This document shows, piece by piece, positions 3,722-57,831 of a stretch of DNA of 64,000 bases. The DNA lies in the NCBI RefSeq assembly GCF_000149955.1, contig NC_030987.1, positions 4,087,190 through 4,151,189 on the forward strand. The letters are read 5' to 3'. The translations under genes and the position numbers were made by a program. The number at the start of each line of letters is the position of its first letter. The stretch's first letter is position 1. This DNA is from Fusarium oxysporum f. sp. lycopersici 4287. Lineage: Eukaryota > Ascomycota > Sordariomycetes > Hypocreales > Nectriaceae. The notes under the pieces are model-generated. The model did not search any database and had not been told where the DNA came from. It saw only the letters and a program-made list of their open reading frames with translations.

Positions 3722-5447
3722 ATGGCAGACATGTCCTACGAAGATACTCAACATCTACTTGACTCTATTACCAGCACGGGCTTCGACCACCTTCTGAATG
3801 ACCACAAGGATGACAATGCTACTGAGGAAGTTGACGAAGATACAAAGGTATCTATGCTCATGGACCCCAGCAACTCCAACTTTCAGAACCATCAGGCCCA
3901 ACATGGAATTGAGAACGAAGGTCTGCTGGCATCTAATTCTTTTGAGAAAGAGTTTATGGACGCATGCAAGGCAGCAAATGCCAGGATCCCAAATTCTTCT
4001 GGGTCTGATGCACAGTTGAGTGGTCTTGACAACAGTGGTAGTACTATCGACGAGGATGTTGTCCAAGGTCCTGTCTCTACTGCTCTCACACCTGCGACTC
4101 AGTTCTCTTCGCCCACGAATCCTAAGGACTACCTACCAAAGTCGTTCCAGACACAGCCATATCCGCCACTTAGTAATCAGGCTCAGTCTTACCCTGTCCC
4201 GATGGGTCAACCATTCTATGGTCAGACGGCCCTTCAGCAAATGCAACCCTTTCCAGTACGACAACCCACTGGCCTTGGCGGACGTCAGATTAGGCAAACT
4301 CAATACCCCCAGCAGCAACTCTTCGTCTCCGTGAACAATCAACTTCGTCAACCTCTCCCTGGGCAAGTATCTCACCCAGCCTTCCAAGTCTCTCAACCTC
4401 ACAAACCCCCCTCCCAAGCACCACCTCGCAAAGGCCCTGCCCCCGGCGAACCAACCCGTCACAAGATCCCAGCCAACCCAGCCAACATCAAAGCCCACAC
4501 TTTAGAGCAGCAGTCACTCCTCTCAGAGCTGGAGCACTTCACCCACGAATACCAGGGCTACATCACGAACCCAGTTCAAGCTCGCCACATAGGCAACATC
4601 TTTCTCTCCCTGGCACATCATGAAGTAAAAGTCACTCCGCCAGACATAGATCCCACATTCCCCCGAACGCACGAAGCGTACCGCGCTCGTGTGCAGGAAC
4701 TCTTCATGGCTATTGTTGACTGGTCGAATCCTAGGGGATGGCGAACGAAGATGGGATCGAAGCTTGCTGCGCAGTGGGTTGAAGAAGTCATGACCTATCG
4801 AAAGAATGTTGGGCTTTCTGTTGAGCCGTCTGATATGCTTGATCACCAAATCGAACCTCCTCTTGATAGGATGCCCCCGGTGAATGAGCAGTGGAAGAAC
4901 GTCGTTCATCGTCAGTTGTCCAACATTGAGATTGAGATTCTCAGTTCCAAGATTCTCGTAAGACTGTCCTTTATTTACATGTAAGCTCTACTGACTAGAG
5001 TCATAGGACTCAGCCATGTTGTCGCAGCAGGATCGGAACTATGTTCCGCTTTGGAGCAATGCCGAGTGTCAGTGGGAGCAGTTCGCTAGTTTTGGAGAGC
5101 GTTAGGAACGCCTCGTGAACGCGTTTCGAGTAAGCCACCCCCTTTCACTTATCAACCAATAACTAACTTGGCTAGGACAACAAGGTTTTGATTCACTCGG
5201 CTCTACGCTCATCGTGGCTCTCCCGAATCACCAACTCCCCGGTTGCCGAGCTTGTCGTAAGTATATAACCATGGTTTTATGATGTGAGTACTAATGTGAA
5301 ACGCAGCGCAAGGAGAACAATAAGGCTGGTAATGACAAGAAGCGAAATGCCGCTCACCGTCAGAATGGCAAGGGTGCGAAGAGACCTCAGAATGAAGAGA
5401 GTGAAGGTGAAGAAGAGGGTAGGAAGACGAAGAGGAAGCGAAACTGA
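3722..5447 (+). CDS. Uncharacterised Q/P-rich protein with one in-frame TAG
   Basis: Four exons: 3722-4957, 5007-5129, 5176-5256 and 5307-5447. All junctions are phase 0, and the introns are 49, 46 and 50 nt with good GTAAG donors. The N-terminal 120 aa are acidic, residues about 130-250 are Pro/Gln-rich and probably disordered, residues about 255-400 form a conserved-looking helical segment with WSNPRGWRTKMGSKLAAQWV, and the C terminus is a basic, glutamate-rich tail ending KTKRKRN, possibly nuclear. In exon 2 the codon at 5103-5105 is TAG, although coding continues in frame through the next three exons. Termination there gives 444 aa; decoding the stop as an amino acid gives 526 aa. I do not recognise the family. 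See the separate TAG entry and findings. Confidence 0.7.
5103..5105 (+). other. In-frame TAG in hairpin loop (candidate UAG to UGG editing site)
   Basis: Codon 445 of the 3722 gene. Upstream arm GAGAGCGU (5095-5102) pairs with ACGCCUC (5108-5114) through seven base pairs with a single bulged A, leaving the five-base loop UAGGA. Inosine at the A would read as Trp in the context FGER-W-ERLVNAF. The same TAG also reads as a splice acceptor, giving another possible way around the stop. Confidence 0.5.
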
Positions 5448-5883
5448 TCGTTCAATTTGATTGGTGATATGGTTCTTTTGTGCCTATATACGATGGCTAT
5501 ACCGGGTGTTTTGGGGTATTTTCAGTTATGATTTTCGAAATGGTGGCATTTTGGCATCATTGGATGGCATTATAAATAAAGCACCTTGGGGTTCGATTTA
5601 GACAGCATAGACCTACACCCGCATGGGATTGACACGCATAGCTTGTTAGTTATACCTCCCCAAAGGAACACCTTTTTTTTTTTCCAGAACACATAAGGGA
5701 CTCATGACAGCAGAAACAAATGGGAGAAATTTGTTATCAATTATGGTGTTAAAACACCCGCTTATACCATCCATGCATATCTAGCCGAGTTGATCTTCTC
5801 AACTACCCTCAATTTTCCTTACCCTTCTTTTTTCATGTTGAATCCCCATCAACGCCAAAATCAAAACACCTCTTTTTCACGGC
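5448..5883. other. convergent 3' flanking region
   Basis: Between the stop codons of the 3722 gene and PDX1. No coding potential was seen. It contains AT-rich stretches, 'AATAAA'-like sequence near 5574-5580 and a T tract at about 5672-5683, consistent with 3' ends of two convergent transcripts. Confidence 0.6.
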
Positions 5884-6849
5884 CTACCATCCTCGTCCAG
5901 CAAGCTTCTCCTCGGGCTTCATGCTATCGCAGTTAATTCCCACCATAGCCTCGCCAAGCCCCGTGCTAGTCTCGGCCAGCACCTTGGCATCCTTATAGTG
6001 TGTAGTCGCACGCACGATAGCCTTGGCCCGCTTCGCAGGGTCGCCGGACTTGAAAATACCGCTGCCGACAAACACACCGTCGCAGCCGAGCTGCATCATG
6101 AGCGCGGCGTCAGCGGGCGTGGCGACACCGCCGGCGGCGAAGTTGACGACGGGCAGACGGCCTAGCTCCGCGGTCTGGCGGAGGAGATCGGCGTCGACTT
6201 CGAGCTCGCGGGCGAGTTCGCGGATGCGGATTATACCACCCTCGGCGAGTGCGGCCTTGGCTTGCGCGATTTGCTTGTTGACTGTCTTCATGTGTCGCAC
6301 GGCCTCGACGACATCGCCGGTGCCAGCCTCGCCCTTTGTTCGGATCATAGCAGCGCCCTCTGCGATTCTTCGCAGCGCCTCACCGAGGTTTCTGCAGCCG
6401 CAGACAAAGGGAACACCGAAAGTGCTCTTCTCAACGTGACTCTCGTCATCGGCGGGGGTGAGAACCTCGGACTCGTCGATGTAGTCAACACCAAGAGCCT
6501 CGAGGATCTGACACTCGACAAAGTGGCCGATGCGGGCCTTTGCCATGACGGGGATGGTGACGGCTTCTTGGATCTGCTTGATCATGGCGGGGTCTGACAT
6601 ACGAGCCACGCCGCCGTCTTTGCGGATGTCGGCGGGGACTCGCTCGAGGGCCATGACGGCGCATGCACCGGCTTCTTCGGCGATGCGGGCTTGCTCAGCG
6701 TTTGTGACGTCCATGATGACGCCGCCCTTGAGCATCTGGGCGAGACCGGCCTTGACGGTGAAGGAGGACTTGGCCTCGCCGTTGGAGGCGGCACCAGTGT
6801 TGGAGGAGTCGTTGGTCATGGTGAAGGTATAGTATGAAGTAAAAGACAA
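5884..6849 (-). CDS. PDX1: Pyridoxal 5'-phosphate synthase, PdxS/SNZ subunit
   Basis: Synthase half of the DXP-independent PLP pathway. It condenses ribose 5-phosphate, glyceraldehyde 3-phosphate and ammonia delivered by the PDX2 glutaminase. The intronless 321-aa frame is a beta/alpha barrel with [13 protein letters not shown] (Asp near the first lysine site), [10 protein letters not shown] (sugar-binding Lys), [18 protein letters not shown] (second Lys and phosphate loop) and the barrel end [15 protein letters not shown] second ATG at 6819 (MTNDSSNTG) would give 311 aa, closer to most fungal homologues, so the true start may be there. It is transcribed divergently from PDX2, with about 1 kb of shared upstream DNA. 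Confidence 0.97.
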
Positions 6850-7888
6850 GGTAGTGGGGGTGTGAGGGTATGGTTTGAGTTGGAGAGTTGGAGTGACAAG
6901 AGAGGGGAACGGGTAATTATAAGTTTTTTCTTTCTCCTATGCACTATGCAGGTAGAGTCAATGACTAGAAAGGGTATTACTCAAAGAAGAAGTTGACAAG
7001 AACAAATCTTAGAGTTTCTCCTAGTCTGACTGTTAGGTACCCCTCCGGCCCTCCGCCTCCGCACCCGGTATACGGCGCCGTGAGTGCGGAGTCAAAAAGG
7101 GTCCAACTATGACACCAATTTACTGCAGCCGCGGCCTCCGAATATGCAAGTCTAATGCGCCATAGCCCCTCTGCAGAGCCCAAAACCCGCCGGCATCGAG
7201 CTCCGGCCCATCTTTAAGCGCGCCCTACAGCAACAGTAATTGGATGAATCATTGACATGTGCCGATGTTTAGAGGCGGCAATTGTCGGGAAGACGAGGCT
7301 CAAAAAGGCCCTTGGCTTTGCAGGTGAGGAGTATCCAAAGAGGGGGATATGCATGCATTGTTCTAGATTCTTGTGATATCATGGATGGAATCATTTGGTA
7401 GATCGTAGATAATGTCTCATCTCATCTCATCTCATCTCACTCATCTCTTATCTTGCATGAGTTCGCCACGATAAGCCATGTTCACTCTCCTCCATTGTCC
7501 ACACGTATTGTTCTCTCAACCCTTCTAGACTCCAGTACCAACAACCTCTAGTAAGTAACTGACTCAATATAGTTCAACCACCTCCTCAACTCTTATTTTT
7601 TTAGCCCGGAGAACAATCGGGGTAGTCCGGAGGTACTCTCGCTCTAGCGGCTCCGTCATGCATGCAGCCTACATGCGCTCTAATGCACGTCTTTATCCCT
7701 TTTGGGTCACTCCGGTACCCATCACCAGAATCTGGGGAACCTTTCTATCTTGTATGTCACCTGCGAGTGACTAAGATTTTTTTGCCTTCGGTGAAAGGCT
7801 CCGAGTTTAAACTGTCCGTTATCGCTCCTTGTCTTTATCATCTCATATTTCTCTAGCAAATCATCGTTGTTGAGAACTCCAAGTCAGA
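6850..7888. other. shared PDX1/PDX2 divergent promoter region
   Basis: About 1 kb between the two start codons. No gene was seen. Positions 7415-7447 hold a CTCAT pentanucleotide repeat. The region is the only upstream DNA for both genes, so co-regulation through it is a reasonable inference. Confidence 0.65.
7415..7447. repeat. CTCAT pentanucleotide microsatellite
   Basis: About six copies of CTCAT, the last ones imperfect (CTCAC then TCATCTC), in the divergent PDX1/PDX2 promoter region. Confidence 0.85.
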
Positions 7889-8653
7889 ATGATCAGTCTT
7901 ACGGTCGGTGTCTTGGCCCTTCAGGGTGGTTTTGCTGAGCATATCGATCTTGTTCGAAAGGCCGCAGAGTACCTTTCTTCTACAGAAGGTATTTCCAAGA
8001 CGAAATTCCACTGTATCGAGGTTCGCACGAAAGAAGAACTCGATCAGTGCAATGCTCTGATCATTCCTGGCGGCGAGAGCACCACTATCTCTTTCGTCGC
8101 CGCTCAATCTGGTCTCCTTGAGCCATTGAGAGATTTCGTCAAGTAAGCGGTCCCCGTCTCATAAATGATGCAAATACTGACATAGATCAGGGTCCAGAAG
8201 AGGCCAGTCTGGGGAACATGTGCAGGCCTTATTCTCCTCTCAGACGAGGCAAATGCTACCAAGAAAGGTGGTCAAGAACTCATCGGTGGTCTCGCAGTCC
8301 GCGTTCACCGCAACCACTTTGGTCGTCAAATGGAGAGTTTCGAGTCAGGAATGAACCTCCCCTTCTTAAACGACGATAAACCGTTCCCTGGAGTCTTCAT
8401 CCGCGCACCCGTCGTGGAAGAAGTCATCGGTTCGTCTGACGATGGACGACCACCAGTTGAGGTCCTGGCCAAGTTACCAGGTCGAGTAGATAAGATGAAG
8501 TCTGGCGTCTCACAAGCCAATACCAAGGACGATTCAGGGGACATCGTCGCTGTTAGACAGGGTAATGTGCTAGGAACAAGCTTTCATCCTGAGTTGACGA
8601 AGGATGAGAGGATACATGTGTGGTGGTTGAAGGAAATTCTCAACCAGCAATAA
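7889..8653 (+). CDS. PDX2: Pyridoxal 5'-phosphate synthase glutaminase, PdxT/SNO subunit
   Basis: Class I glutamine amidotransferase that makes ammonia for PDX1. Exons 7889-8142 and 8191-8653 are joined over a 48-nt intron and give 238 aa. Visible motifs are VGVLALQGGFAEH at the N terminus, the oxyanion-hole loop IPGGESTT, the nucleophile Cys in WGTCAGLI, which lies just after the splice junction, and the His-Glu pair of the triad in SFHPEL near the C terminus. Length and order match SNO/PdxT. Fungal homologues carry an insertion in the second half, as here (residues about 140-195). It is paired head-to-head with PDX1, so both subunits of one enzyme are encoded side by side. Confidence 0.95.
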
Positions 8654-8737
8654 ATACAGCGACATAGACGGCGTTTTGGGAAAATAGAAATATTAATTAT
8701 TATTCGGGGGTATCAACCACTTATTTCCTACGTTTCT

Positions 8738-10766
8738 TCATACTTTGCCCATCGCTGCATCATATCCAGGCGGCGGTGGTGAATGCGCTCGAGCTGGTCC
8801 TCTCTGTGAAGAAGAGCCAAAGCCCAATATCTGAAGAATCTCAAGATCACCCATCGACTGCGCCAGTTCCTGCGGTGAAATACACCCTCCAGCATTCATA
8901 TCAGCGCCGTGTGCTTTCAGAACCCTTATCAACTCCGTATCTCTCCTCGAAATAGCTTGCATCAATGGCGTTCTGCCCTTCTTATCCGCCGCATTAGCAT
9001 CAGCGCCAGCTTCGAGAAGAAGCTTAGCCTGATCCCTCTTCCCGTTATCAATAGCGTAGAGCAAAAGTGTCTCGCCGCTGCTCATCTTCTTCTTGGTGTT
9101 GGAGCCAGCTGCGAGCATCATTTTCACGAGGTCGGTGTTGCCTGTCTCCACGGCGAAACAGATCGCTGCGACGCCCCATGTTCCGTCTGATACGTTTGGT
9201 GAAGCGCCGTGGTCGAGAAGCATCCTGACGACTCGAATTTTCTCGTTCTGTGAGAGTTTGCTGTCGCGGAGGGCTATGACGAGAATTGGGTGGCCGACGA
9301 GATCCTTTGCGCTGGCATTGGCGCCATGTTTGAGAAGAAGTTCTGCCATGTCAAGTTTTCTCTTTGCAATAGCGTCCGCGAGAACAGATAGTCCACTCAA
9401 GTTCTTTGAGCTTGCGTTTGTTCCACTTTCAAGAAGCAGCTTCATCATATCCATACGATCCTGGCTCGCTGCGATAGACAATAGCGAATTGCCAGACAGA
9501 TCGCTAGTGTCTGGATTCGCGCCATGTTGAAGCAGCATCCTAGCAAGCTCCAAGTTACCCTTCTTGACAGCCTGTGCAAGAACCGGTCGTCCAGAGGTGT
9601 TCGTGGTGTTTGGCTTCGCACCGTTGTCCAAAAGAAGCTGAATACCCTCCAGATTCTCACTGTTGCATACATCGACAAAATATGATTGTCCAGACCAGCT
9701 GGCAGCGTTAACGTTCCATGTGCCCTGGTCGATAAGCATCTTTGCAACGCCAATGCTTCCAACTGATGCGGCCAGGAAGACCGGTGGAATCTTCATATCT
9801 CTGCCGTTGGTGTCGGCACCAGAACCGATAAGAAACCGCACAGCGTCTTCTTGATTGGCCAGGATAGCACAGCCAAGAGGCGAATTGCCTTCTCCGTTTC
9901 GTCCGTTGATGTTCGCTCCTTGTGCGAGTAAGCCGCTCATTTGTTGAACATCACCGCGAAGAGCCGCTTGACACAGAGCTGTGGATAAAGGATCAGGCTT
10001 AGGCCAGAGACCAGCTGTCATGGCCTTGAACGAGTTTGTCAACGAAGACAGACCTTTAGCAAACCCTGAAGATCCACTTGGTGATTCGCAGCTCGGCGAT
10101 TGAGCTGAAGAAGGCTGTGCTGGTTCATAAGGCGGAGGTTCGATATCGCCAGGAAGAGGACCTTTACTACTCGATGCATAAGAGTCGTTCTGCGATCCAG
10201 TGAAAAGAATATCCTTTGTCTGAGAAGCCTTTTGACAAGCTCTGTTAACATGATCAAAGATCTCTCTTCCACTCTTGGTATCGAGAGCAGAATCTTGATC
10301 ATCCCGAACTTTGCTAGCACATCATGAATAAACGTTCACACAGCGAGATGAGCACCACTCACATCGACAGCACTTTTGCGAAGAACGCAAAAAGCCGGGA
10401 AAACGCAACAACAGCATCACTATAAACCACCAAAAACACCTCATCCAACAACGGCAGCGTCTCGGCCTGCAGTCTCATGACCTGTTTATTCAACACAGTC
10501 GCGACAACATCGCACGATCCAAGACTCTGACTTATCGTCGTCTGCAATCGACCCGAGATAGCGCTGGCGCTATTTAGCGCAGTCTCGAGAACGCCCACAT
10601 GCTGATGGAGCTGATACAACCTCGTCGCGAAAGAGGACAATCGCTCGTCGGGTACTTCTAGCGCAGTGTTTAATTCATTGAGCTCTTCGGCGCTGGACAA
10701 CACCCGGTGAGAAATACTCGAGCCGAGCGAGGTAAGTGAAATGACCGAGAAGCCGTCTCCGTCCAT
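8738..10766 (-). CDS. Ankyrin-repeat protein with fungal helical N-terminal domain
   Basis: Exons 10766-10363 and 10313-8738 are joined across a 49-nt intron (GTGAGT..CTAG) and give 659 aa. Residues 1-135 form a helical domain resembling the N-terminal domain found ahead of fungal NACHT/ankyrin proteins, with a hydrophobic stretch LPLLDEVFLVVYSDAVVAFS. Residues about 136-225 are a Ser/Pro-rich linker. Residues about 240-640 hold roughly eleven ankyrin repeats with consensus pieces such as AKLLLEAGADANAADKKG and RTPLMQAI. Ankyrin arrays bind partner proteins; no enzymatic domain is present. The partner and process are unknown. The long open frame of the second exon has no in-frame ATG near its start, which supports the two-exon model. 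Confidence 0.85.
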
Positions 10767-11290
10767 TGTATGTGGGGAAAGTTAAGAAGGAGTTGAAGTG
10801 GGGGATTGTCAGATCGACTGAGGGCAGGCTTCAGTCTACTGCTATATAACCATGGAAACTACATCACTGCCTATTCCCAGTAGGGCTGATAGCGGGAGAC
10901 AAAAACGCCTAAGAAGGCTGAAAATGATTCAAATGCGCGTCGTGTGCTGATTACGCGGTCTGTTGACTGCGACACGCACGTGTATAACACATCACAGACG
11001 AATAGAGACATAGCTTTGGCTTGGCTGCCTCTTTTGAGGCTGTAAACTAGATCCTACGGCCAACTTGACAGGGATATAAGCTCTGCGGTGATAGGTGCGG
11101 AGATGCCGTAACATGACGACCTGCCTCATTGATTTGGTAGATAATGCAGTTGGAGCTGTAATAGGTTCTGCTTGTTATGGACGACCTATTTTCTTATTCA
11201 ATCATCGCTTACGCTATCGATCATTATACCCTGCATATCCACGTTGCTAACCCCAGACTCTCTCGTATCTCGTATTCTCTCGCTCTCTCT
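10767..11290. other. intergenic region
   Basis: Upstream of the ankyrin gene and downstream of the small membrane-protein gene. No coding or RNA feature was recognised. Confidence 0.55.
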
Positions 11291-11619
11291 TTATTTGGGG
11301 CTCACGGGCTTGGATTTTACACCCTCGATAGGTTGTTCCTTTGCTTTCTCGGGTCGAGACATAAGGAAGAAGAAACCTAGACCGATCGCAAGACCAACAC
11401 CTCCCAGCATCACGATCTGCGAGCTATTCATCATCAGCCACATCTCCAACTCTACCGCAGCACAACTTACTTGTCACCCTTGCTCATGGGTTTACCTTGA
11501 GATTTCGGTCCAATAGGTTCCTTCTCATTGTGTCGAAGTAATCTGGTTGTGCGAAAGCCTCGCTGGATAGGAAGAGAGGGCCCCAAGGCCATTGAAGATC
11601 GAACGATACGTGCAGACAT
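11291..11619 (-). CDS. Small single-pass, probably mitochondrial membrane protein
   Basis: A 93-aa gene split by a 47-nt intron, so neither exon stands out alone. Exon 1 is 11619-11471 and exon 2 is 11423-11291, with donor GTAAGT and acceptor AATAG; the split codon gives Asn. Residues 1-30 are Arg/Ser-rich with no acidic residue (MSARIVRSSMALGPSLPIQR), as in mitochondrial presequences. Residues about 54-71 form one transmembrane helix (MLGGVGLAIGLGFFFLM), followed by a short Lys/Pro-rich tail. Size and layout fit the small inner-membrane proteins of fungi. I cannot name the family. Correct splicing and clean reading frame across the intron are the main support. Confidence 0.8.
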
Positions 11620-20898: not shown

Positions 20899-21691
20899 TC
20901 AGAACGCAATCAAGCGATCCGAAGAGAAGAAGCCCCGAATACCATTCTGAACAGCCCCGAATCGCAGGAAGCGGCATGATTCGCTCTCCAAGTGGTTGAC
21001 CATACCAGCTAGAGTTGTAAATTCCTTAAGGCACTTTCTGTTTGGGCAGTGATAGAGCTCTTGCTGGTGTCGTGGTGAGGCCAGGTGCTGATTCAGGCTC
21101 GACAGCTGTCTAAACAAGTCGCCACAGAAGTAACACTCGTATTGTCCATAGCGTGAGTTGCAGGCGAGAGAGGTTGCATGGTAAGACACTGTTCCGTGCC
21201 ATTCAAGAAGCTTGTTGCAGACGAAGCCATTAGGGTCTCGTCGTCTGACCTCTTGATACAGCGTGTCGCGGTCCAGAGGTGCGTTGGGGCAACATCCGCG
21301 CTCGAGATGGTGAACAATACCACTGGCAGCTTGGTAGTATGCCTTGCAGAAGGGGCAAGAGACTCCTTTTTGATAGGTTGAAACACCCGAGTAGCTCATT
21401 CCTTGATGCCGTCTGGAGTTCAAGTGCTACCACAGTCAGCGTTAACTCTCCCGTTCCTTGTGGTAAACAAACCTGGCTAATAGCATGCCAGCTCGAGAAC
21501 TGCTGATCGCAGTGGCAACAGTAGAAGCAGGAGTTGACCATATGGTCCATACACTGCTTGTGGGTATGGAAACCGGCACCACAAGAGTCGCATTCCCATT
21601 CAGGTGTATAGTGCCCTGTTGCATTACAGTGTTGGTTGCGGGAGTGCTCTCCTGCAGGGAACTGCCTCTAGCAAGTCCCGCACGAGTACAT
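20899..21691 (-). CDS. C2H2 zinc-finger protein 1 with in-frame TAG at codon 8
   Basis: Exons 21691-21473 and 21426-20899 are joined phase 0 over a 46-nt intron; the frame is 248 codons long apart from a TAG at 21668-21670. It starts with MYSCGTC, then the stop, then RQFPAGEHSRNQHCNATGH, which together make one C2H2 finger. Further fingers follow: WECDSCGAGF..H, FYCCHCDQQF..H across the intron, CPFCKAYYQ..HHLERG, YECYFCGDLF..H and YHCPNRKCLKEF..H. The C-terminal segment (CRFLRFGAVQNGIRGF) is typical of this fungal multi-finger family. If the stop is real, only seven residues are made, or translation restarts at an internal Met. Nucleic-acid or protein binding is likely; the target is unknown. 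A tandem paralogue lies about 650 bp upstream. Confidence 0.75.
21668..21670 (-). other. In-frame TAG in hairpin loop (candidate UAG to UGG editing site)
   Basis: Codon 8 of zinc-finger gene 1. On the transcript strand the arms GGGACUUGC and GCAGUUCCC (21679-21671 and 21665-21657) pair with seven Watson-Crick pairs, one U-G wobble and one mismatch, closing the five-base loop UAGAG. The stop falls between a CxxC pair and the following RQF of a zinc finger, where an aromatic residue such as Trp would fit. Confidence 0.55.
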
Positions 21692-22341
21692 TTTGCACTT
21701 GGTAGCTTCAGAGAAAGGGTTGAATGTCTTTTCTGCAAATGGGAGTGAAGTTTGGAAGATGGTGTTGTGCAGGTGAGAAAAGTCGAAGTTGAGGGGTTGA
21801 AAGGAAAGGAAGAGGCACCGAATTATGGGCGCACGTGATGAGATCAAGGCTGGCGTGGCAGGAACAATTTGGTGCAGGTCGGGTGGCTTTTGTCTCCTGA
21901 GAACTGAGCCATCCGATCCTTCCAAGGCTCGCTGTCCTGGGAGTGCGTATTCAGCAGTGTTCTTTGAACTACAGTGCAGTTCTGGTGAGCCTAGCTAGGG
22001 GAGGCAAGAAAACTTGAAACCTTTATCCTAAGTGATGAAAATGAGCAATCTAAAACCCTCCTAAGTTGATACTAAACTTACCTAACTACTTTTGTCATTT
22101 AGAGTAGAGGTCCTAAGCTTTTTTGCTCCCCGAGGCCTAGTCACTCAGACCCCCCAAGGGCAAAGAAGATGCAGGTAGTATGCGAGCTCAAAAAGACCCG
22201 AATATAATTACTATTATACAACAGATATAATATGAAATTCCAAATCGACCTCAGATCAGCGTCTTCTCATCGACTACCGATTCCTCAGCCTAAAGCAAAA
22301 TACACCAGATACAACGTTAACACCGAGCATTCACATCCCCC
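21692..22341. other. spacer between zinc-finger paralogues
   Basis: Promoter/leader of zinc-finger gene 1 and 3' flank of zinc-finger gene 2. No other gene seen. Confidence 0.5.
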
Positions 22342-23021
22342 TCATGGCAAAGCTATCATCTTATGCGGATCAACAATAGTAGCAATGCTCTTCTGCACCT
22401 GCTGAAAACGCATTATTTTACAAATCTCGCTCTCAAGGTGATTTATCAGCTCCGCCAACGTCTTAAACTCCTTTCCACAAGATCGTTTCATACAGTGATA
22501 CAAACTCTGCTGATGTCTCGGCGACTCCAGATGCTTCTTCAGAGCATTTAGGGTCATGTGCAGCTTGTGGCATAGATAACACTCGAAGGCTTTGGGCCAG
22601 GGGTTCTACGCTGCAGTTGGGTTGATAGTATATATCTCCTCACCGTACCATGCTATCCCTTTGTTCGTGATGAGATTGCGATGATCGCGATTCTTGATGT
22701 AGTAGTAGAGTTTATTGCGATCCATGGGAATACGAGGGTACGAACCTCGCTCAAGATGGTGGGATAGACCTGTTGCTGTGTTGCAGGTGACTCTGCAGTA
22801 TGGGCATTTCACTGCTGATACGCGATGAAGTTTGGGGTTTAAATGCTGAACGAATTAACAATAACTCAATCAACTACTGGGTATCAGCTTACCATCCGGA
22901 GGTTATTCGTGTTCATAAACTGACGATTGCAGTCCGCGCAGTGAAAATGCCTTTCAATCTCATGCTCTCTAATCTCGGGTGGGCTAAGTTTCAGGATAGA
23001 GTTTTGGTGGTGACCATCCAT
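22342..23021 (-). CDS. C2H2 zinc-finger protein 2 with in-frame TAG
   Basis: Paralogue of the gene downstream. Exons 23021-22893 and 22845-22342 are joined phase 0 over a 47-nt intron (GTAAGC..TTCAG). The frame has 210 sense codons if the TAG at 22606-22608 (codon 123) is decoded. Fingers visible are FHCADCNRQF..H spanning the intron, CPYCRVTCN..HHLERG, FECYLCHKLH..H and YHCMKRSCGKEF..H; the C terminus (CKIMRFQQVQKSIATI) matches that of the first copy. It lacks the first finger of its neighbour, so it is N-terminally shorter. The TAG lies at a different place from the one in copy 1, so the two stops arose independently. Without decoding, the product is 122 aa. Confidence 0.7.
22606..22608 (-). 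other. In-frame TAG (candidate UAG to UGG editing site, weaker hairpin)
   Basis: Codon 123 of zinc-finger gene 2, within NPTAA-stop-NPWPKAFECYLC. The aligned position in copy 1 is Cys followed by the same Asn. A modest stem, CAGCG with CCCUG (four pairs and one mismatch), would place UAG in a six-base loop. Confidence 0.4.
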
Positions 23022-30873: not shown

Positions 30874-33534
30874 TCAACCCATCATCTTCAAAAGCTTCAT
30901 AAGCTCCGCAATATCAGCATTACTCGCCCTTCCCCCCAAGTGTCCATCCCGATTCATCTGCTCCATCTTGAGCTTCCTTGACCCCCACAACTCCGACCCA
31001 TCAACATCAACATCCTCAACATCCTCCGGCCCAACCTCCGCATCCCTCGCCTCCTTAGTTTCCTTTACCCTCGTATAAAAACTCGTCCATGGCTTCTGTG
31101 GCGACGTCGAGGAACCTATCATTTCCCACGCTGCGCTCTCGGGCATCGGAGCTCCCGTGCCCCGCGGCCGTCGAGGAGACGTAGCCTACTACAAAGGGCA
31201 GTTGGTCCTCGGAAGGTACGTAGGTGAGGAACTCGGGGCCAACTCCGGCGGTGAGGGCGCGCTTTAGATCGGTTAGGAGGGACCAGGCGATGTTGTGCAT
31301 GGTGAAGAATTTGAAGCTGATACGGGGGATTTCGCTGTTGACGACTTGGGCGAGCTGTTCGATGAGACCACTTGGAGATTTTGGCACTGCCTCGAGCTGG
31401 GATCTGTTAATAAAAGCTTGCTGTAGGGACTTATCAGGGCTTACATTGGCCTCCTTGGCCCTTTGCTTCAGGTCCTCCTGTATATGACCCTTGCCATCCA
31501 TGATTGCCTTCTTACGACACTCCGTCAAGAGTTCTCCAACAGTAGTAATTGTCCAAGGCTCACGGGGATTATCCACACAAATACGGTTGTCCAACGAAAG
31601 GGACACCCAGCCATCGAACTTCATGTTTGGTGCAATGCCTTTATGTTCGGTAAGCTTGGCGCTCCGCCTGTTCGGTGCCCGATGGGTGAGTGAAGTGCCC
31701 AGGCAGAGACAGTAGTTCTTGTAGTAGCCCTCAAGGTCCTTGGACGGATTTCCAACGAAGAAGCACGGGTTGCCTTGGTATCCCCAGAACTCCTCGAGAT
31801 CCTCCCACGCTTGGCCTTCGGGAATACGACCCTATTATCGAAGGGCTTGGTACAGTTGTGTAGTAGTCATAAGACCTCTGCTGGGCGCAGCAGCCTTGAC
31901 ACCATTGACATGCAGCATAGATCGCGTGTGATGGATCAAAAGACCGCAGTATATGGGGTTCCGACGAAGAAACGGGAACGCCGCATTATCATCACTGTGA
32001 GCCATAGCACCGAAATCCATCATCGACTGGTTCGTCTCATAGATAGGGTCGTGGTTCCAGCGCGTCGCTACTTGGAGGACTTGCCTGCGCTCAGCCGTCT
32101 TAGGAAGATCAACAAGAGCCTTTTGGATCTTCAGACTCTCCTGCTTGAACTGCTCATACCCGCGTCCGACGGACTCTCCAAGACCCTGGACAATGTCGAG
32201 ATACATCTGAAGAGCACACGATATCCAGAGACGAGGGTTCTCTTTCTTTTCTTTGAACGCAGCGCCTATGCCGCGGACAAGCTCGTCCTCCACGTCACCT
32301 TGACCAGGGGTTGTGTTAAGGAAGTGAAAACCCGGGAAAATCTCAGACAGGGCCGTCTTGTCCCGATTCCGCCTCTCAGTGTTATTTCCGCCACCGGCAC
32401 GGAGCCTCTCTTTATACCAACCAAAGGCGCCGTTGTAGCTTCCAGGTATGACAGTGTCACGGTTGTGATCTACTTAGCTCTTGAAAAGACCCATGATGTC
32501 TAGAGTCAGGACCTTGGCCACGTCGTAAGCCGCAAGGTTATACATTGCGCCTGGGCTATTCCTTTCCTTGTCGATTCCTAGCCCCTCACAAGCTGCGTTG
32601 AAGCACAGTTGCGCGAAAACAGTTGTGCCGCCGAATTTGTCCATCACCTTCTTGATGTCCATCTCCATGCTGTGGGCAAACTCAAACGCTGTGTTGGTAG
32701 CTAGAGCCACAGTGGCAAGATCAAGTTCACCATTGGCGTACTTCTCCCAGAGCGAATGAATCTCTTGGCTGAGATAATCATAGTCGCGGAGAAGCGTGGT
32801 GAAAGCGAAGAATGCATCTTCCCAGGTGACCTCTTCCTCGACGGTGTATTGGGTTTCAGGTGTAGGTGTAGCAGTGATGTCAGGAGCGTTGAGGAATTCT
32901 TCTGAAAAGGGTGTAGACGCCGAGGACGTCAAACATGCCCTTTGCGGTGTGGTTTGTCTTGACATCTGTCTTTTTGTCGAGATCATCTGGTTTGAAAAGA
33001 CCAGCTTCCATAATGGGTTTGAGATAGCCGCGGACTTTCTCCAGGGCCTCAACGAAATGAGAGTAAGAAGCACCAGCGACGATCCCTTCTTGCACCGCTC
33101 TCTGTGAGCTTCTGAGAGAATGATCGTCGAGCTATAAATAATATCAGCAAGACTGGAATCAACATAACCAGATGCGTTTAACACACCCCAGATACCTCTC
33201 TCCAAAGCTACAGCAGTCCGATGAGGAACCGCAACAGCATTCGTCTCGGCAACATGTTTCGCCATAGCCTCAAAGTCCCTAACTCTGATGACATATTTCT
33301 TTGTGCTAGGGTCTTGCTTCTCCTGTGTTTTCTTGTTCTTAGCTCTGCTAGGTCCTTTGCCCTTTCCATTTCCTTTGCTCTTCTTCCTTTTCTTCAGAGT
33401 GTCGAGAGCCGCTGCGCCAACTGCACCGTCAGCGTCGTGGCCGTGCGCTTTAGCAGTGTTGGCTGGCTATATTGCTACAGAGTCTTTGTCGGCTTGTATT
33501 GTTGGTAAATACTCATATAAGCTGGGGAGAGCAT
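30874..33534 (-). pseudogene. Decayed DUF6604-domain gene
   Basis: The remains of a fungal protein of about 830 residues can be followed from MLSPAYMSIYQQYK (33534) to KLLKMMG (30874), with one normal intron at about 33163-33111. Defects seen are: a frameshift near 33490-33495; a TAG at 33467-33469 where Trp is expected before ANTAKAHG; a frameshift in the A4 run near 32905; a TAA at 32474-32476; a tandem TAA-TAG at 31832-31837 (probably from CAA CAG); and a frameshift near 31181-31190. The stops fit C-to-T or G-to-A change in CpA/TpG context, as caused by repeat-induced point mutation. Between the lesions coding sequence is well preserved, so the decay is recent. The function of DUF6604 proteins is unknown. 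Confidence 0.85.
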
Positions 33535-43109: not shown

Positions 43110-43436
43110 GTATGTAAGCGAGTCAGTTGAAGGACACATGAAAGGCAATCAGGAAACTGGTCCTAAACGAATATACGTTGACGAAAGTGATGGACCATAC
43201 GCGGACGAGGAATGCATTCACAAGGTTACGAGGGTTGTTTCAAAGCGTTGAATCTTATTCATAAGGCCCATCACATTTTACAAAACCAGTTTAGATAAAA
43301 ACAATAATGATAATTGATCGCATTTCTTACGTCAAACTGGCCAACTCCGTATGATAACTATACAGTGACAAAACCATAACGAACGCCGCGTATGCATCCA
43401 GTGCTTGCACAAATATTTCTCAAGCAGCCTTTCTCT
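43110..43436. other. convergent 3' intergenic region
   Basis: 327 bp between the F-box-like and transporter stops; AT-rich, no gene. Confidence 0.5.
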
Positions 43437-51018: not shown

Positions 51019-51732
51019 GGTGATGTATTATGACAAGCGGAAGCCTGTTGGAGAAGAAGAAAAGAATGTGAAAATAAGAGGATGTGTGAGATCTTATATA
51101 AGGTATAGATGCTGGAAAGTAGCTTTTGCGTGTGTCTTTTTAAGTTTGGGTCAGGACTGAACTGAGTGGCAGAAATCGGCCAGTGAGTCAGATGCTCCCT
51201 TTGTAGGTTGCTGAAGTCTCGAGAACCTTTTAGCTACAGTGGCTTAGGTAGTCCTGTGAATTGTAGGCTTGCAATGGCTGTACTGGTTGCATGCGGCTGA
51301 AGCTTAGTGCTTTGGATGCCTGGAGGCTGAGCTAGACGAGGAAGTTTATCCACATCGAACAGGGTACAATTTGGGAATCGCCGAATAGTATGAACTGATC
51401 AGAATTTATACATGGGAATTAGAGATGTGACTGATCAGAAAGTAGTGATAATTATTGGTTCTACAGCTCTACTTCTCATCATCGGTGTTGGTTCAACATG
51501 CCGTTGTCTCTGAATACCCCTGTAACTGACGTCTACAACCCATGTCCTGGGAGTTCAACAGGGGTCTTTTGCGGGGGCAAGGGTGCTAAAACTGGCCGCT
51601 TGACTCACCCGGGAGCTAAGGACCTTTAAGGTACCAGTTACTGACCATACATCTCTGAGCTTTTCGTCTCTCGTAGTCGCAGAATTTCCTCTGATTTCTC
51701 CATAGCATGGACTTGTATCTATCCAGCTTGCA
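51019..51732. other. intergenic region
   Basis: Promoter of the DUF2828 gene and 3' flank of the second F-box gene. No gene recognised. Confidence 0.5.
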
Positions 51733-53322
51733 TTACAAGCCTGCTGACATTAGTTTCTCAAACCTGGGATCAAATGCATCCAAGAGCCTCCCATTACCTT
51801 GAGGCGTATCACTTTGAGGAATATAGGGATCCTCAACACATCCTTCATCTTGTTCAAATGGGTTCTCACCGTTTTGATACATGAAACTGGTCACCTCCCG
51901 GCTAACATCCATCATCACAGCGCCATGAACCTTTGCAAACCGAACGTCAACGCGAACAACTATTTTAGGCTGGTTTTCTGCGTCCCGCTCGCGCCAACCC
52001 AGCTTCTCGTGCATGTCGTGCACCAAGCTGTGATAGTCGCCACTATCGGGCATGAAGATAAAGAAGCTCAGCTCAACAGACTCCAGGGTTGGCGGTAAAG
52101 CTCTAAGAAATTTGATCACGTCGTCCTTTTTAACGATGAATCGAGAAAGGCCGAAATGTCGAAGTTGGTGCCAGTCGTTAACAGGGAAGATACTATGCAA
52201 AGGAATAAAGTGGTCTCCTTCCTCTCCATCAGAGTCATCAGAGTCATCAAAGTCGTCAACATAAACAACATTAGTAAATAGACTAAAATGTTGGATATCC
52301 GTCGCGATGGAAAGCGTATTCCGCAAATGGTTACTTCGAAAAGAGCACCAGTTCATGTTACACTGGTTGCCACAGTGTAGGGAGAGGTCGAGGCCCGCGA
52401 ACCCAGGATGACTTAGGATAGTGTTCAGGTCTTTGATCTCGCTGTTCTCAGCGTCATCAAACATACGGCAACTGATCCCTGTCCGAAGTTGATTGGTGTC
52501 AATAGCCAAGTCGGCAAGTTTACTCTCTGGATTCTCCCGTAGGTGTTGGGCGATGATGCGACTGACGAGACAATAGCCGCGCCATCTATCCTTCTCCGAG
52601 CGATCCCAATCCCTCGCTTCGGGAAAGTTGGAATGCATCTTTGTGAGAGGCCATCCACGCTCAATGGGGTAAAGGAGACCGCGTGGGAGTGATCTGATAG
52701 TGGGCGTGAGATACAAGGGCAGCCCAGGTTTTCCATGAGCCGCAGGACTAACTACCATTCGTCTCAGATTGGGGAAACGCAGCAGCCCATACCTCAACGC
52801 ATCGGCGTCTCCGTTGGTGGCAATCGTCTCTTGTTGTTCTTGCCACAATTTCTTGAAATGCTTGAATGCTTCTGCTGGGCTGAGTAGATGTTCAAAGGCT
52901 TCTTTGACTTGGCTATGGTGTGGCTTGTACCTCCTGATCATTCCGCGATTCTGGCGGTAGACGTGACGATACCATTCAGGAACTCCAGTGACCTCACCGA
53001 TATCATCTTCTTGGTCATACCATGAGGGCCACTCCATTTCGTGGGCTGGATCAAAACGTGCATCATCGTAGATAATCTCTGTGACCTGGAACCGAAAGGT
53101 TTCGTGATCCGCCACAGCTCTGAAGACCTCTATATCGCGGAAATTGGGCGAAAGAAAGAGGCGGTTAAGGCGGAGATGCGTGGCATCTTTGATATAAGTG
53201 CATGTTTGGCGCAGAGTTTTCAAGTCGATGTTGTGCAGTTGGTAGAGTACTTGATTGAGCACTTCGGCTGGAAGACACCCAAGAAGCCCAGACGATCCTC
53301 GGCCTTCATCATTGGCGGTCAT
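51733..53322 (-). CDS. F-box protein
   Basis: Intronless, 529 aa. Residues about 13-55 (LGCLPAEVLNQVLYQLHNID..LRQTCTYIKDAT) make a clear F-box, the Skp1-binding part of an SCF ubiquitin ligase. The remaining 470 residues have no recognised repeat type; they include an acidic patch DDFDDSDDSDGEEGD near residue 360 and a conserved-looking segment GDYHSLVHDMHEKLGW near 440. Such proteins are numerous and variable in Fusarium. The substrate is not known. Confidence 0.85.
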   Translation of the reverse strand: MTANDEGRGSSGLLGCLPAEVLNQVLYQLHNIDLKTLRQTCTYIKDATHLRLNRLFLSPNFRDIEVFRAVADHETFRFQVTEIIYDDARFDPAHEMEWPSWYDQEDDIGEVTGVPEWYRHVYRQNRGMIRRYKPHHSQVKEAFEHLLSPAEAFKHFKKLWQEQQETIATNGDADALRYGLLRFPNLRRMVVSPAAHGKPGLPLYLTPTIRSLPRGLLYPIERGWPLTKMHSNFPEARDWDRSEKDRWRGYCLVSRIIAQHLRENPESKLADLAIDTNQLRTGISCRMFDDAENSEIKDLNTILSHPGFAGLDLSLHCGNQCNMNWCSFRSNHLRNTLSIATDIQHFSLFTNVVYVDDFDDSDDSDGEEGDHFIPLHSIFPVNDWHQLRHFGLSRFIVKKDDVIKFLRALPPTLESVELSFFIFMPDSGDYHSLVHDMHEKLGWRERDAENQPKIVVRVDVRFAKVHGAVMMDVSREVTSFMYQNGENPFEQDEGCVEDPYIPQSDTPQGNGRLLDAFDPRFEKLMSAGL

Positions 53323-55567
53323 TTTCTCAAGTCATTTAGATAGTTGAGATATTTGAGATAGTAAAGTCTCTAAAATCCAGCTGCACCAAGATAAAAGTAG
53401 CTTCTACCAATTCCGTGACTATATGAAGATAGGACCTTGCGTGCAACTACTTACTCTGTACAGTGGGTCAATTTAGAGGCACCTAAAGGTGTCTTAGTGT
53501 GGAGCTTATGGGGACAGAGTAGGAATGGCATGTCTTTTCACGTGAGACCGTTGCAACCTGGTTTCTTCCATTCCAACTTCATGTCTTCAAGTTTTTACTC
53601 CTTTATCTTCTTCTCCGTGTCTCCAAAGCCTGAATGTTCGTTCTGCGGTCGTATCGTCGAGTGATGAGACCGGTCACTGTCAATTGCTGATCAGTCTCAT
53701 TCAAAAGACACCTTTCTTTGACAATCAACTTTCCAATTGTTCAGTGTGTTCTTTGTCAACTGCGGCGCCAATCCCTTGTTCCCCATACTTCCCTTGTACA
53801 TATGTGCCTTGTGTTGTATCTCAATGCGTCTCGGGTCTCGTCTCTTGTTTCGTGGTCTCTTCGTACGTCGTGTCTCCTCCATAAAGCCAGCGCTTTGGGG
53901 GCTATTCGTTCGTCTTCTCCTGTAACATCAAGTCTGGTCAGTTACAGCTTGTATGTACGGTTGTAGGGAGAACCTCTATATGGATCAAGGAGTGTCGATG
54001 CTTCGTAGATCCGATCGCAGTCAAGACAAGTGGTCTGATGGATATGAAAGCAACCGCAAGTGCAAGAATAAGGGATAGAGGCAAAGCGAGTCTCCGAGGA
54101 TGTGATACTTTGTATATACGTGTGTCTGTGTTCCTCTCTGTCGTGACATGGACTTCGGGCATGGTGTCTTCGAGCGAAGGCCTGCTGGTCCATCAGTATG
54201 CTCCGAAGGATATCAAGGCCATGCGGTAGTCGTGCTTCTTACTCTTGTCTCGCCCATGTGCCGCTCCCAGGTCGCTGCATCTTTGGTGGAATGCTTCCTC
54301 GTCGTTGGCCGATGTCTCGTATGCCCCATGGGCAAGCCGCCGCCGCAGCCGTTATGATGGAGGAAGATGGGGATGACTGTTGCAGATGGCCGATGCACAT
54401 CGTCTGTTTGCTTTACGGGTTCGGGGTCGAAGGGTGGAAAACACCATGAGTCCATGGTGGTGATACTGCGCAACGATACAAGGTTAGTACTCTTCAAGAT
54501 GCACTGCTCCCTTAGTGAGGGAGCTAATACTCAAGACCATCGTGGGCATATTCATCCCTCGAGCTCTGAGTTCCATGACTCTGTGCTGGTGGATGAAATT
54601 CCCATGTACTGGACGAAATACAATATGGATGAATCAAAACAACAAGATGGCGATATCGTGATGACTTCTGGGGGACTAGTGGGGTCCCGAATAGTTTCAA
54701 CAGTGGAGGGGCGGGACAAAATGGGATGCAGGCCACCCACAACACCAAGCAACAACACCACTTGGACTGCAGAAGAGCAAGTGAAAGTTGGCATGGGCCA
54801 TCTTGTCAATAATATCTACCTCCGACAATATTGGGATTACGATTATATTATCTACGTTCAAAATTCAGGTCGAGTGTCAGGGCGATATCGTGCTAATGAA
54901 CAACATATGAACATGACATGAACATTGGTCTTGATGCTTTCTTCCAGACCTGTGAACAGGATGAATGTTCTGCACCGAGGTGGTGCATGTCTCGATACCT
55001 TCTACTGCTTTCGTCACACTGCACTGCCGCTCCTCCAACTTCTCCAGAGCCCCTCCGCTGCTAGGACTAATTCCACTGCAGTGCCTCAAGGAGTTGACAT
55101 CCAGCAATGCCCTACCCCTGCCCACAAGAAACTCTGCAATTGCTGTCCCCGGAGTAAATACTCAGTGCCCTACTCCCGAGTATCACTGGCAGCGCAACTG
55201 GTCGTCACCTGGTCACCGGAGTCCTCTGCCTTTTGTTGACTCTGCTCTCCTGTAGGCTAGGGCTTGACGCGTTGTAGGCTGCATCTTCTGCCACGCTCGC
55301 GTATATCTCGCTCTCCTCTTTTCTCCCCTTCTCCAACACCATCTCTCCCTCATCTCTGCTGCACAGAACAAGACTTCCCTTCACATTCCTTTACTCTGTT
55401 CGTGCCGTATCAACAGTATCTCACTCACTTACCTATCCATTTTCATCTTGATCTCTTATTTGAGAAGTTATAATCACCATACCCAATACCCCTACTTCCT
55501 GTTTACATCTTCCCCAACCTTCTACCTCCGCTCCTTTCCCCCTTCACTAACACTAATCGCCCCCGAC
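53323..55567. other. divergent intergenic region (2.2 kb)
   Basis: A 184-codon open frame at 54367-54921 (plus) is the longest in this stretch, but it shows no domain and has the look of chance. CT-rich DNA at about 55300-55560 is the leader of the RRM-like gene. Confidence 0.5.
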
Positions 55568-57831
55568 ATGTCTGCCCATCCTCCAGATGAACATAGAGGT
55601 CCTACCTCTGAGGAAGGGAGTTGGGACATCCCGTCTTCCCGCTCCGATGAGGTAGCCTCTCACTCCTCCGACTTCAACGGAATTGGTACAGCATTTGGGG
55701 ATCTCGACTCACACCCTTCCGATATGAGTCTTTCACTTTCCGCTGACAGCGATGAGGTCACACTGGCTTTCCAAGAGCGAGACGACATCCTGAAAGCAAA
55801 GCTTGCCAGCGTTGAAACTCAAATCGACTACATGACCAGTACTGCTAATTTCCCCAACCTCTCTTCGGAAGAGATTATGAGCCGTCGCGAAGCTCGCGAG
55901 CAAGCCCGAGCCGATCTTGTCAGGCTCAAAGAGGAGAACCAGGCCAACCGCGTTCGTTACGACGAACTCAGAGTAAGTCATCACCAGCCAAGACAAGCTC
56001 GTCGTCTCATATTAACCCTTTCACCTTCTAGGAGGATCTTATCAACTCTACCGATGGCAACCTCACCCCTGCACAGGTTTTGGCCAAGATTAAGGAATTG
56101 GACCGAGTTGAGGTAGACCTTGCCGAAAGCAACGCGGCGCTGCGTCGCATGAGTGAAGCCCAAGGTGACTCCTCGTCCGGTAGTGATGTAAGTATTTCCT
56201 GTACCTTATTGAAACAGATGATTGACATCTGAACTTAGGGGGATGATGAGGCATCATCTGAAGAGGATTTGTCTGATGACTCGGACGAATCCAGCGCCCA
56301 GGGAACCACCTCAGAGTCCGACAGCGATGGTCCAGGGGAATAGGATCCCCCAAACTCTCTTGCTGATGATTCCTCAGAGATGGAGTCCCAATTCGCTCGT
56401 TCAGATGGCAACTCCGCTGCCGATGGCGGCAACAATGATGCATCCCCAGCCAACCAAGGCACTGCATCTGCTGATCAGGGCTGTCCCACCAACGACCAGA
56501 ACGAGACTGTTTCCATTCCTTCTGATGATCAGAAGTACACGATCAACGTCAGCTCGGTTTTCAACGCTAACAGCAACGTTAATTCTCGTCGTGTGCTCTT
56601 GGAAAAGATCCCTCAAAGCACCACTCTGACTCAGGTTGCCAACGCGGTCTGTGGTGTTGGAGGCCTCGTCCGAATCTCCGTTCTGGAGAACATCATCAAG
56701 AGTGGTACTGCGTTTAAGCTTGCCTGCGTTGAGTTCCGCGACTCGACCGCAGCGGAGAAGTACGTTGCCAATGTTAAGGCCAACGGGCTTGAGCTTGTTG
56801 ACGCCACTGGACGATTCGTCGACATTGAAGTCAAGCTCATCAACAACACCTCGTCCTACCAATCCCGCCACGGGCACCCGCACAACTATGGTGTCGGTCA
56901 TTACAGCGAGCACTCTGGCCGCTGCATCACCCTCGGCAACTTTCCCACCTCTGCGATCTGGTATCTGTTTACCCGATTCGGGACTAAGTACATCATCCGT
57001 GCTTGGTTTTCCCCCAATGAGAACCAGATGAACGGCAAACTGTCCGTTGAGTTGGCCAGTACCTTCGAAGCCGGTCGCCTCTGCGGAATGATTCTCAACC
57101 GCGGCTTCCTGCCTTACCATGGACCTGTCGCTCAGATGGGATTTGGTCCTACTCCCTCTGACCGAGATGTCGAGGAGCTTACCAGTTCCGTCTCCAACAC
57201 GATCGACTACATCTCTCCTAAACATCTTGTAGATACCTGGAATGTGCAACCCTTCAACCTATTCACTCCCGCAACAAACTTCGTGTATGGTGCCCCTATC
57301 CCTCGGCGAGCGGTTACAAGCCGCACTTCGTCGATGACCGTGGAGGTTTCGCGCATCCCATCTCACTACTCAGGAATGTCCAGTGTAGTGCCGCACATTC
57401 TCGTCCGTTATGAGAAGACCTCCACCGACCTTCAAGATATTCCAATGACAAACATCACCTTTACCTTCGTCGATGAGGATATGAAGTATATTGTCGTTGG
57501 TGGTCAGATCTTTTCTCGAGAGGTCACAGGAGATATCTATACCAAGGTCGATGGCGTCGAGCTTGTCAAGCTTAAGCAGGACAACATTCTCAAGACCAAA
57601 TGGGCCCCCTTCTGGAAGCACTACTGTGAGGTCAACGACCTCCCTGACATCCGCAAGTACGCTGAGTATGGACGAATCGCCGGCATTCGCCGCAACGTCA
57701 ACAAGAAGTTCGGTTTCGCTTCCTCTTGGAACCCCGAGCGCCTCACAGCCATTCCGACTCAGATCATAAACTATCTAAACCCAAAGAGCCGAAAGGTGGT
57801 CTCGACCGCTGGGACCCCTAATCGCAAGTAG
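55568..57831 (+). CDS. RRM-like protein with acidic N terminus and one in-frame TAG
   Basis: Exons 55568-55972, 56032-56187 and 56239-57831, all phase 0, joined over 59- and 51-nt introns. The frame has 717 sense codons if the TAG at 56341-56343 (codon 222) is decoded. Residues 1-75 are Ser/Asp-rich, about 80-185 form a coiled coil (ERDDILKAKLASVETQID, RREAREQARADLVRLKEEN), and about 188-250 are acidic. Residues about 280-380 look like an RNA-recognition motif (RRVLLEKIPQSTTLTQV, KLACVEFRDSTAAEKYV), and about 400-490 like a second (RCITLGNFPTSAIWYLF). The C-terminal domain (about 560-717) has a conserved-looking WNPERL end. If the stop is obeyed, a 221-aa acidic coiled-coil protein results and both RRM-like domains are lost. 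RNA binding is inferred. Confidence 0.75.
56341..56343 (+). other. In-frame TAG in hairpin loop (candidate UAG to UGG editing site)
   Basis: Codon 222 of the RRM-like gene. Arms GGGGA (56335-56339) and UCCCC (56346-56350) pair perfectly, closing the six-base loop AUAGGA. Editing would give GPGE-W-DPPNSL and open the remaining 495 codons. Confidence 0.5.

What the first reader, a model, noticed from the sequence alone, without database searches (positions are those of the whole stretch)
3722..57831. Four genes each broken by a single TAG, mostly in hairpin loops: candidate sexual-stage A-to-I recoding set
Seen: the genes at 3722-5447, 20899-21691, 22342-23021 and 55568-57831 have correctly spliced, otherwise intact frames with exactly one in-frame stop, always TAG. 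In three the UAG lies in a 5-6 nt loop of a local hairpin (stems of 9 with one mismatch, 7 with one bulge, 5 perfect); the fourth has a weaker stem. Known: Fusarium and Neurospora edit A to I in mRNA during perithecium formation, favouring A after U in hairpin loops, and edit some premature UAG to UGG (for example PUK1 in F. graminearum). Inference: these four may be latent genes made full length only in the sexual stage. Contrast: the two clear pseudogenes here carry mixed TAA/TGA/TAG stops plus frameshifts.
Basis: partly seen in the sequence, partly recalled or inferred. Interest (0 to 1): 0.95.

Follow-up and report, generated by a model that had tools for sequence, protein, structure and literature searches.

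The report
Conserved stop-interrupted genes, probably RNA-edited
In a Fusarium oxysporum-type genome, four neighbouring genes each contain one stop signal in mid-sentence; for two of them the stop seems to be kept on purpose across many Fusarium species, as expected if the cell edits the RNA when it needs the full protein, while one of the four looks like an ordinary decaying gene.

Summary
The window lies in a 61.2-Mb genome whose proteins match Fusarium oxysporum. All four in-frame TAGs exist, at 5103 (A), 21668 (B), 22606 (C) and 56341 (D), but the four genes are not one class.

A and D are strong candidates for premature-stop-correction (A-to-I recoding) genes. None of 46 A homologues and 31 D homologues reads a homologous residue through the stop: gene models end at it (F. 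torreyae, A), splice right behind it (3 of 46 for A, 12 of 31 for D), drop the region or start after it. Yet the part behind the stop is better conserved than the part before in 39 of 43 (A) and 25 of 27 (D) comparisons. A recent pseudogene does not do that.

B is plausible: 10 of 20 homologues covering the site carry tryptophan there; hairpin and context are good. C is probably a decaying paralogue: shortened N-terminus, lost zinc ligand, no hairpin.

Hairpin loops alone are hardly significant for four sites, and genome controls gave no TAG excess. Editing itself is unproven: no RNA could be examined. 'Sexual-stage' is the open part, because F. oxysporum has no known sexual stage. The kind is known; these are new candidate members.

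The parts
3722..5447 (+). Gene A: four exons (3722-4957, 5007-5129, 5176-5256, 5307-5447), 526 codons with the stop counted, no Pfam family found in the homologues scanned
5103..5105 (+). In-frame TAG, codon 445 of A; stop position shared with F. torreyae model, 3 of 46 models resume right behind it
20899..21691 (-). Gene B: two exons, C2H2-type zinc-finger protein, 248 codons
21668..21670 (-). In-frame TAG, codon 8 of B; Trp in 10 of 20 homologues that carry the first CxxC
22342..23021 (-). Gene C: two exons, 210 codons, paralogue of B, shortened N-terminus and lost zinc ligand; probably decaying
22606..22608 (-). In-frame TAG, codon 123 of C; Trp in four F. fujikuroi-complex relatives; no hairpin
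55568..57831 (+). Gene D: three exons (55568-55972, 56032-56187, 56239-57831), 717 codons; helical and acidic N-part, RRM-like region behind the stop (sub-threshold RRM_1)
56341..56343 (+). In-frame TAG, codon 222 of D; 31 of 31 homologous models have a gap here, 12 of 31 resume right behind it

Best explanation
Genes A and D, and probably B, are premature-stop-correction genes. Their mRNAs carry one UAG in a local hairpin loop. A tRNA-type adenosine deaminase (Tad2-Tad3 with a cofactor such as Ame1, or another deaminase) converts the A to inosine under some condition, so that the ribosome reads tryptophan and makes the full protein. Without editing only the N-terminal piece is made: for D a helical and acidic piece without the RRM-like region, for A a piece without its conserved basic tail. 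Shown here: the stops, the intact frames, the pattern in relatives' gene models and stronger conservation behind the stop. Inferred: that the stop is present in the relatives' DNA, that editing is the mechanism, and when it happens. Gene C is not part of the set: it is a decaying paralogue of B.
For: (1) A: 0 of 46 homologous models carries a homologous residue through the stop. F. torreyae P0118 ends exactly at it (..WEEFATFGER); P0087 (F. oxysporum), P0090 (F. acutatum) and P0122 (F. lateritium) resume exactly at the codon behind it. The coding block just before the stop (WSNxExQWE) is kept in 6 of 46 models and the one just behind it (RxxNAFR) in 5 of 46, never both in one model. (2) D: 31 of 31 models have a gap at the stop, 12 of 31 resume exactly behind it (DPPNS), and one (P0078) starts just downstream. 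(3) Identity is higher behind the stop than before it in 39 of 43 usable A homologues (3 skipped for too little aligned) and 25 of 27 usable D homologues (4 skipped); for example A against F. graminearum P0116 58% against 32%, D against F. beomiforme P0085 58% against 28%. (4) The stops are TAG in all four; A, B and D lie in local hairpin loops and have 6, 5 and 4 of 6 published preferred neighbours, C 3 (contexts, preferences PMC9600606 passages; counted by eye). (5) B: Trp at the stop column in 10 of 20 homologues; no departure from columns conserved in at least 85%. (6) The same three annotation artefacts (stop taken as end, start behind it, false intron) are published for the conserved edited stop of CHE1 (PMC11169179 section 7); 69 F. 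graminearum genes besides PUK1 had the edited stop in exons misannotated as introns, and 34 of 47 with F. verticillioides orthologues share the edit (PMC4817773 passages). (7) The genome has three places with DUF726, the Ame1 domain, and deaminase-domain genes (Ame1 domain from PMC11087585 passages).
Against: No RNA evidence. No DNA of another Fusarium was available, so conservation of TAG as such is inferred from protein models. The hairpin excess is weak for four sites (P 0.018-0.18). Controls found no TAG excess: a crude gene finder on 264 kb, allowed to read through one stop type at a time, included TAG/TAA/TGA in 2/1/3, 3/3/4 and 2/1/2 genes at three settings; single-stop kinase and P450 matches without insertion were 6 TAG, 6 TGA, 2 TAA. 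F. oxysporum has no known sexual stage. Two of 46 A models show a letter at the stop column, inside stretches that are not homologous (P0117, P0132). The part of A before the stop looks poorly structured, so higher identity behind the stop does not by itself prove translation.
Confidence: 0.72

Rival explanations
1. Alternative splicing: in A and D the TAG is a real 3' splice acceptor (TAG|G), or lies in a short real intron, as automated models have it.
For: P0087, P0090 and P0122 (A) and 12 of 31 D models resume exactly behind the TAG; the acceptor letters fit (scores 2.64 and 3.15). FgBUD14 combines editing with alternative splicing of an intron holding its stop (PMC11156358, section 6).
Against: For A the branch-point score before the TAG is -1.6, lower than in 116 of 117 finder introns, and 11 AGs would be skipped; for D the score is 0.9 (13 of 117 are as low) and 9 AGs are skipped. 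The 48-nt intron of the F. oxysporum model of D needs the donor GTCCAG (score -2.36) (the finder's own donor threshold was 3.0, so its minimum is not independent). Both flanks of each stop are coding-conserved in other species' models.
Confidence: 0.12
2. Ordinary pseudogenes or recent nonsense mutations, frames still intact by chance.
For: Best for C: shortened, zinc ligand Cys to Tyr, no hairpin, Trp in four relatives. TAG is one of the stops expected from C-to-T or G-to-A mutation (general knowledge).
Against: For A and D the stop position is shared in relatives' models while the frame behind it stays the better conserved part. For B, models in F. oxysporum clusters (P0001, 26 members; P0003, 14 members) also begin behind the stop, P0003 in another frame. 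Against decay of C: its first residues (MDGHHQNS) are shared with the model P0016 of a relative.
Confidence: 0.1
3. Stop-codon readthrough or downstream re-initiation produces the C-terminal part without editing.
For: Some models start behind the stop (P0001, P0078).
Against: None of the four stops is followed by C (following codons GAA, AGG, AAC, GAT; sequence), unlike the readthrough contexts I recall. Re-initiation would not explain conservation of the block directly behind the stop in A, which has no ATG in front of it.
Confidence: 0.06
4. Variant of the best explanation: editing is real but made in vegetative hyphae, by an OTT_1508-like (OLD) deaminase or by stress-induced Tad2-Tad3, not in a sexual stage. 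(This overlaps with the best explanation, so the confidences do not add up to one.)
For: 13 OTT_1508 matches in this genome; OLD-ZAO and CHE1 are published vegetative cases (PMC12754623 parts 1-2 of 3; PMC11169179 abstract and sections 6-7). Would explain upkeep in a fungus without known sex.
Against: No OTT_1508 match lies in the window; the one on this contig is about 0.78 Mb away, so B and C are not zinc fingers adjacent to OLD. F. verticillioides, which shares the D pattern (P0077), forms perithecia with editing (PMC4817773 passages).
Confidence: 0.2

Closest known systems
PUK1-like premature-stop-correction (PSC) genes of F. graminearum and F. verticillioides (PMC4817773, passages; PMC11156358, section 1 part 1 and section 6)
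   Same: UAG in a conserved frame, hairpin-loop and U(-1) preference, exon misannotated as intron, frame conserved behind the stop
   Different: Editing is proven there by perithecial RNA; here only sequence, in a species without known sexual stage. Whether A's F. graminearum orthologue (P0116/P0132) is in their supplementary list could not be checked
CHE1 of F. graminearum, vegetatively edited C2H2 factor (PMC11169179, abstract and sections 6-7)
   Same: C2H2 zinc-finger gene with UAG; same three kinds of annotation artefact
   Different: CHE1 has its fingers behind a 145-codon N-terminus; B is stopped at codon 8, C at codon 123. Homology to CHE1 was not tested (its sequence was not at hand)
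OLD-ZAO antiviral editing module of Neurospora (PMC12754623, parts 1-2 of 3)
   Same: zinc-finger gene silenced by an editable UAG
   Different: no OTT_1508-like deaminase beside B or C

Membership tests
Fungal A-to-I premature-stop-correction genes | In-frame UAG (not UAA/UGA) inside an otherwise open, spliced frame | tested here: met
   A, B, D; C also has UAG but a shortened N-terminus
Fungal A-to-I premature-stop-correction genes | Conserved frame behind the stop, stop shared by relatives | tested here: met
   A and D, indirectly from protein models; B partly; C not met
Fungal A-to-I premature-stop-correction genes | Edited A in a hairpin loop, more than background | tested here: inconclusive
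   A, B, D yes locally, C no; four-site P 0.018-0.18; 2 of 4 in a loop at +-30 nt
Fungal A-to-I premature-stop-correction genes | A-to-G mismatch in RNA, stage-specific | not testable with these tools
   no RNA reads held
Fungal A-to-I premature-stop-correction genes | Editing machinery (Tad2-Tad3, Ame1) encoded in the genome | tested here: inconclusive
   DUF726 and dCMP/cyt-deaminase domains present; orthology to Ame1, Tad2 and Tad3 not established
OLD-ZAO module | Zinc-finger gene adjacent to an OTT_1508-like deaminase | tested here: not met
   13 matches in the genome, none in the window
CHE1 orthologues | Sequence homology to CHE1 | not tested
   CHE1 sequence not at hand

The most novel reading that the evidence does not exclude
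A fungus with no known sexual cycle keeps conserved editable stops with constrained reading frames behind them, three candidates in one 54-kb stretch. It would then either still edit mRNA in a cryptic perithecial stage or use the recoding switch in vegetative hyphae, and editable stops would serve as a genomic test for hidden sex.
Probability: 0.4. Interest if true: 0.75.

Novelty: new member of a known kind. Interest (0 to 1): 0.5.

Why it matters
Editable stops kept under selection would give a DNA-only readout of whether a supposedly asexual crop fungus still runs the A-to-I mRNA editing programme. They would also show that gene catalogues of many Fusarium species carry false introns, starts and ends at such genes: if the reading is right, none of the 46 models of A and 31 models of D seen here gives the full protein.

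Tried and rejected
Hairpins as sole proof: rejected, weak for n = 4. Genome controls: a home-made codon/splice gene finder on the window plus 200 kb to its left (264 kb, 1884 N). A first version over-called introns and was discarded. The later version did not separate TAG from TAA/TGA, recovers the TAG of D at two of three settings, never those of A, B or C, so it is inconclusive. Stops inside Pkinase (131 matches), MFS_1 (9 scored of 918 candidates, none with a single stop) and P450 (94 matches): of 35 single-stop matches, typed over by hand have no insertion of 10 or more positions: 6 TAG, 6 TGA, 2 TAA. Intron acceptors ending in TAG confound this count. DNA methylase hits have no stop inside the matched exons; whether the published FgRID site is shared was not tested. 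OTT_1508 (OLD) partner in the window: none. Rfam and tRNA scans of the window: nothing. PDB sequence search of homologues of D and A: nothing better than E 0.36. Structure model of the D homologue P0056 (20 sequences): mean pLDDT 48, only the order of secondary structure used; no fold search made. Density: about 70 such genes in F. graminearum (PMC11156358; roughly 14,000 genes, recalled) would give about 0.1 among the roughly two dozen genes of this window (22 found, plus B and C) against three candidates; post hoc, and the F. oxysporum rate is unknown. Two papers on PSC genes are not held and supplements were out of reach, so the published gene list could not be checked. Literature searches for editing in F. 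oxysporum; of their hits PMC12582100 was opened for this (passages), and those passages speak of F. graminearum and F. verticillioides only; the other hits were seen as listings.
Full report
Where the window lies. The window is G000:C2:4087190-4151189 of a 61.2-Mb, 71-contig genome. Gene D is 96% identical to an F. oxysporum model (P0056) and B is 98% over 81% to another (P0001), so it belongs to the F. oxysporum complex or very near it. One MAT1-1 alpha-box match is present. No sexual stage is known for F. oxysporum (PMC3334483, passages).

The four genes. With consensus introns each gene gives one frame with one internal TAG. A has 526 codons with the stop at 445; B has 248 with the stop at 8; C has 210 with the stop at 123; D has 717 with the stop at 222. 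Homologues of A have no Pfam family above its cut-off; those of D carry a sub-threshold RRM behind the stop. The low-confidence model of the D homologue P0056 shows helices at 61-179 before the stop and strand-helix orders like an RRM at about 289-372 and 400-457 behind it.

Gene A. Across 46 homologues, 44 named Fusarium and two from metagenomes, no model contains the stop position as a homologous residue; two show a letter there inside non-homologous stretches. Most models delete all or part of exon 2. F. torreyae P0118 simply ends at the stop. Models from F. oxysporum, F. acutatum and F. lateritium resume at the very next codon. Yet the codons on both sides are conserved where models include them, and exons 3-4 are better conserved than exon 1 in 39 of 43 comparisons, for example F. 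graminearum P0116 58% against 32%. The simplest reading is a stop kept at one codon over much of the genus while the protein behind it stayed under selection.

Gene D. All 31 homologous models have a gap at the stop; 12 of 31 resume exactly behind it. The part behind the stop is better conserved than the part before in 25 of 27 comparisons, by little among close relatives and clearly among distant ones (F. beomiforme P0085: 58% against 28%). D homologues were seen only in Fusarium proteins of the F. oxysporum and F. fujikuroi kind and a few further ones (only the 8000 candidates sharing most words were scored).

Is the stop just a splice site? In both A and D the TAG could formally be an acceptor. 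It would need to skip 11 and 9 AGs. In A the branch-point score is lower than in 116 of 117 introns; in D it is poor but not excluded (13 of 117 as low). The 48-nt intron of the F. oxysporum D model has a non-consensus donor. Alternative splicing around such a stop is known in FgBUD14 (PMC11156358), so this rival is kept at 0.12.

Gene B. Ten of 20 homologues that carry the first CxxC pair have tryptophan at the stop column; the others have D (4), G (2), N, L, E or S. B departs from none of the columns conserved in at least 85% of homologues. F. oxysporum-cluster models start behind the stop (P0001) or in another frame (P0003). B could still be a recent nonsense mutation.

Gene C. Four F. fujikuroi-complex proteins have tryptophan at its stop. 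C lacks about 70 N-terminal residues found there and has tyrosine instead of a cysteine that 54 of 55 homologues and B keep. Its first residues are shared with one relative's model (P0016), and other differences flagged are partly shared by its own orthologues; these are not counted as decay. With no hairpin and three of six preferred neighbours, C is best read as decaying.

Structure and context. In +-10 to +-20-nt windows A, B and D sit in hairpin loops with probability 1.0 and C does not; at +-30 nt A drops to 0.1, at +-45 nt B to 0.45, at +-60 nt A to 0.05. Against other coding-sequence TAGs the four-site mean is not convincingly high (P 0.018 at +-45 nt, 0.07-0.18 at the six other sizes). 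Published editing sites are in hairpin loops in 62% of cases and prefer U at -1 (PMC4817773 and PMC9600606, passages). Matches to the six preferred neighbours are 6 (A), 5 (B), 4 (D) and 3 (C), counted by eye from the contexts.

Machinery. The genome has three places with DUF726, the domain of Ame1, nine matches to the deaminase domain PF00383 and 13 to the OTT_1508-like deaminases. Which of them are editing enzymes was not established. None of the OTT_1508 matches is near B or C.

Controls that went against or nowhere. A gene finder allowed to read through each stop type found no TAG preference in 264 kb at any of three settings. Stops inside kinase and P450 domains showed none either.

Verdict. 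A and D: probable conserved premature-stop-correction genes. B: plausible. C: probably not. The kind of system is known; the new points are these candidates, their apparent misannotation across the genus, and their upkeep in a fungus without known sex. Whether the switch works in a hidden sexual stage or in hyphae is the open and testable question.

Noticed in passing
window 31055-33466 (-): DUF6604 gene with an in-frame TAA at 32474 between two same-frame open stretches, and a further open stretch at 31055-31831: an interrupted gene whose stop is not TAG.
   Followed up: partly
genome G000, contigs C1, C2, C4, C5, C7, C12, C15, C55, C71: 13 OTT_1508-like deaminase matches, the family said to contain the antiviral RNA-editing OLD proteins; three on C15 and C71 share score and open-frame length.
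   Followed up: no
G000:C1:3905598-3906263: Strong kinase-domain match with one TAG inside and no insertion relative to the profile; could be an edge effect of an intron acceptor or a PUK1-like case.
   Followed up: no
G000 contigs C3, C6, C62, C70: Eleven full and one partial kinase matches with the same pattern of 3 TGA and 1 TAA inside, apparently one multiplied gene.
   Followed up: no
window 20899-23021: B and C are tandem paralogues; F. fujikuroi-complex annotations such as P0007 fuse units like both into one gene of about 400 residues.
   Followed up: partly
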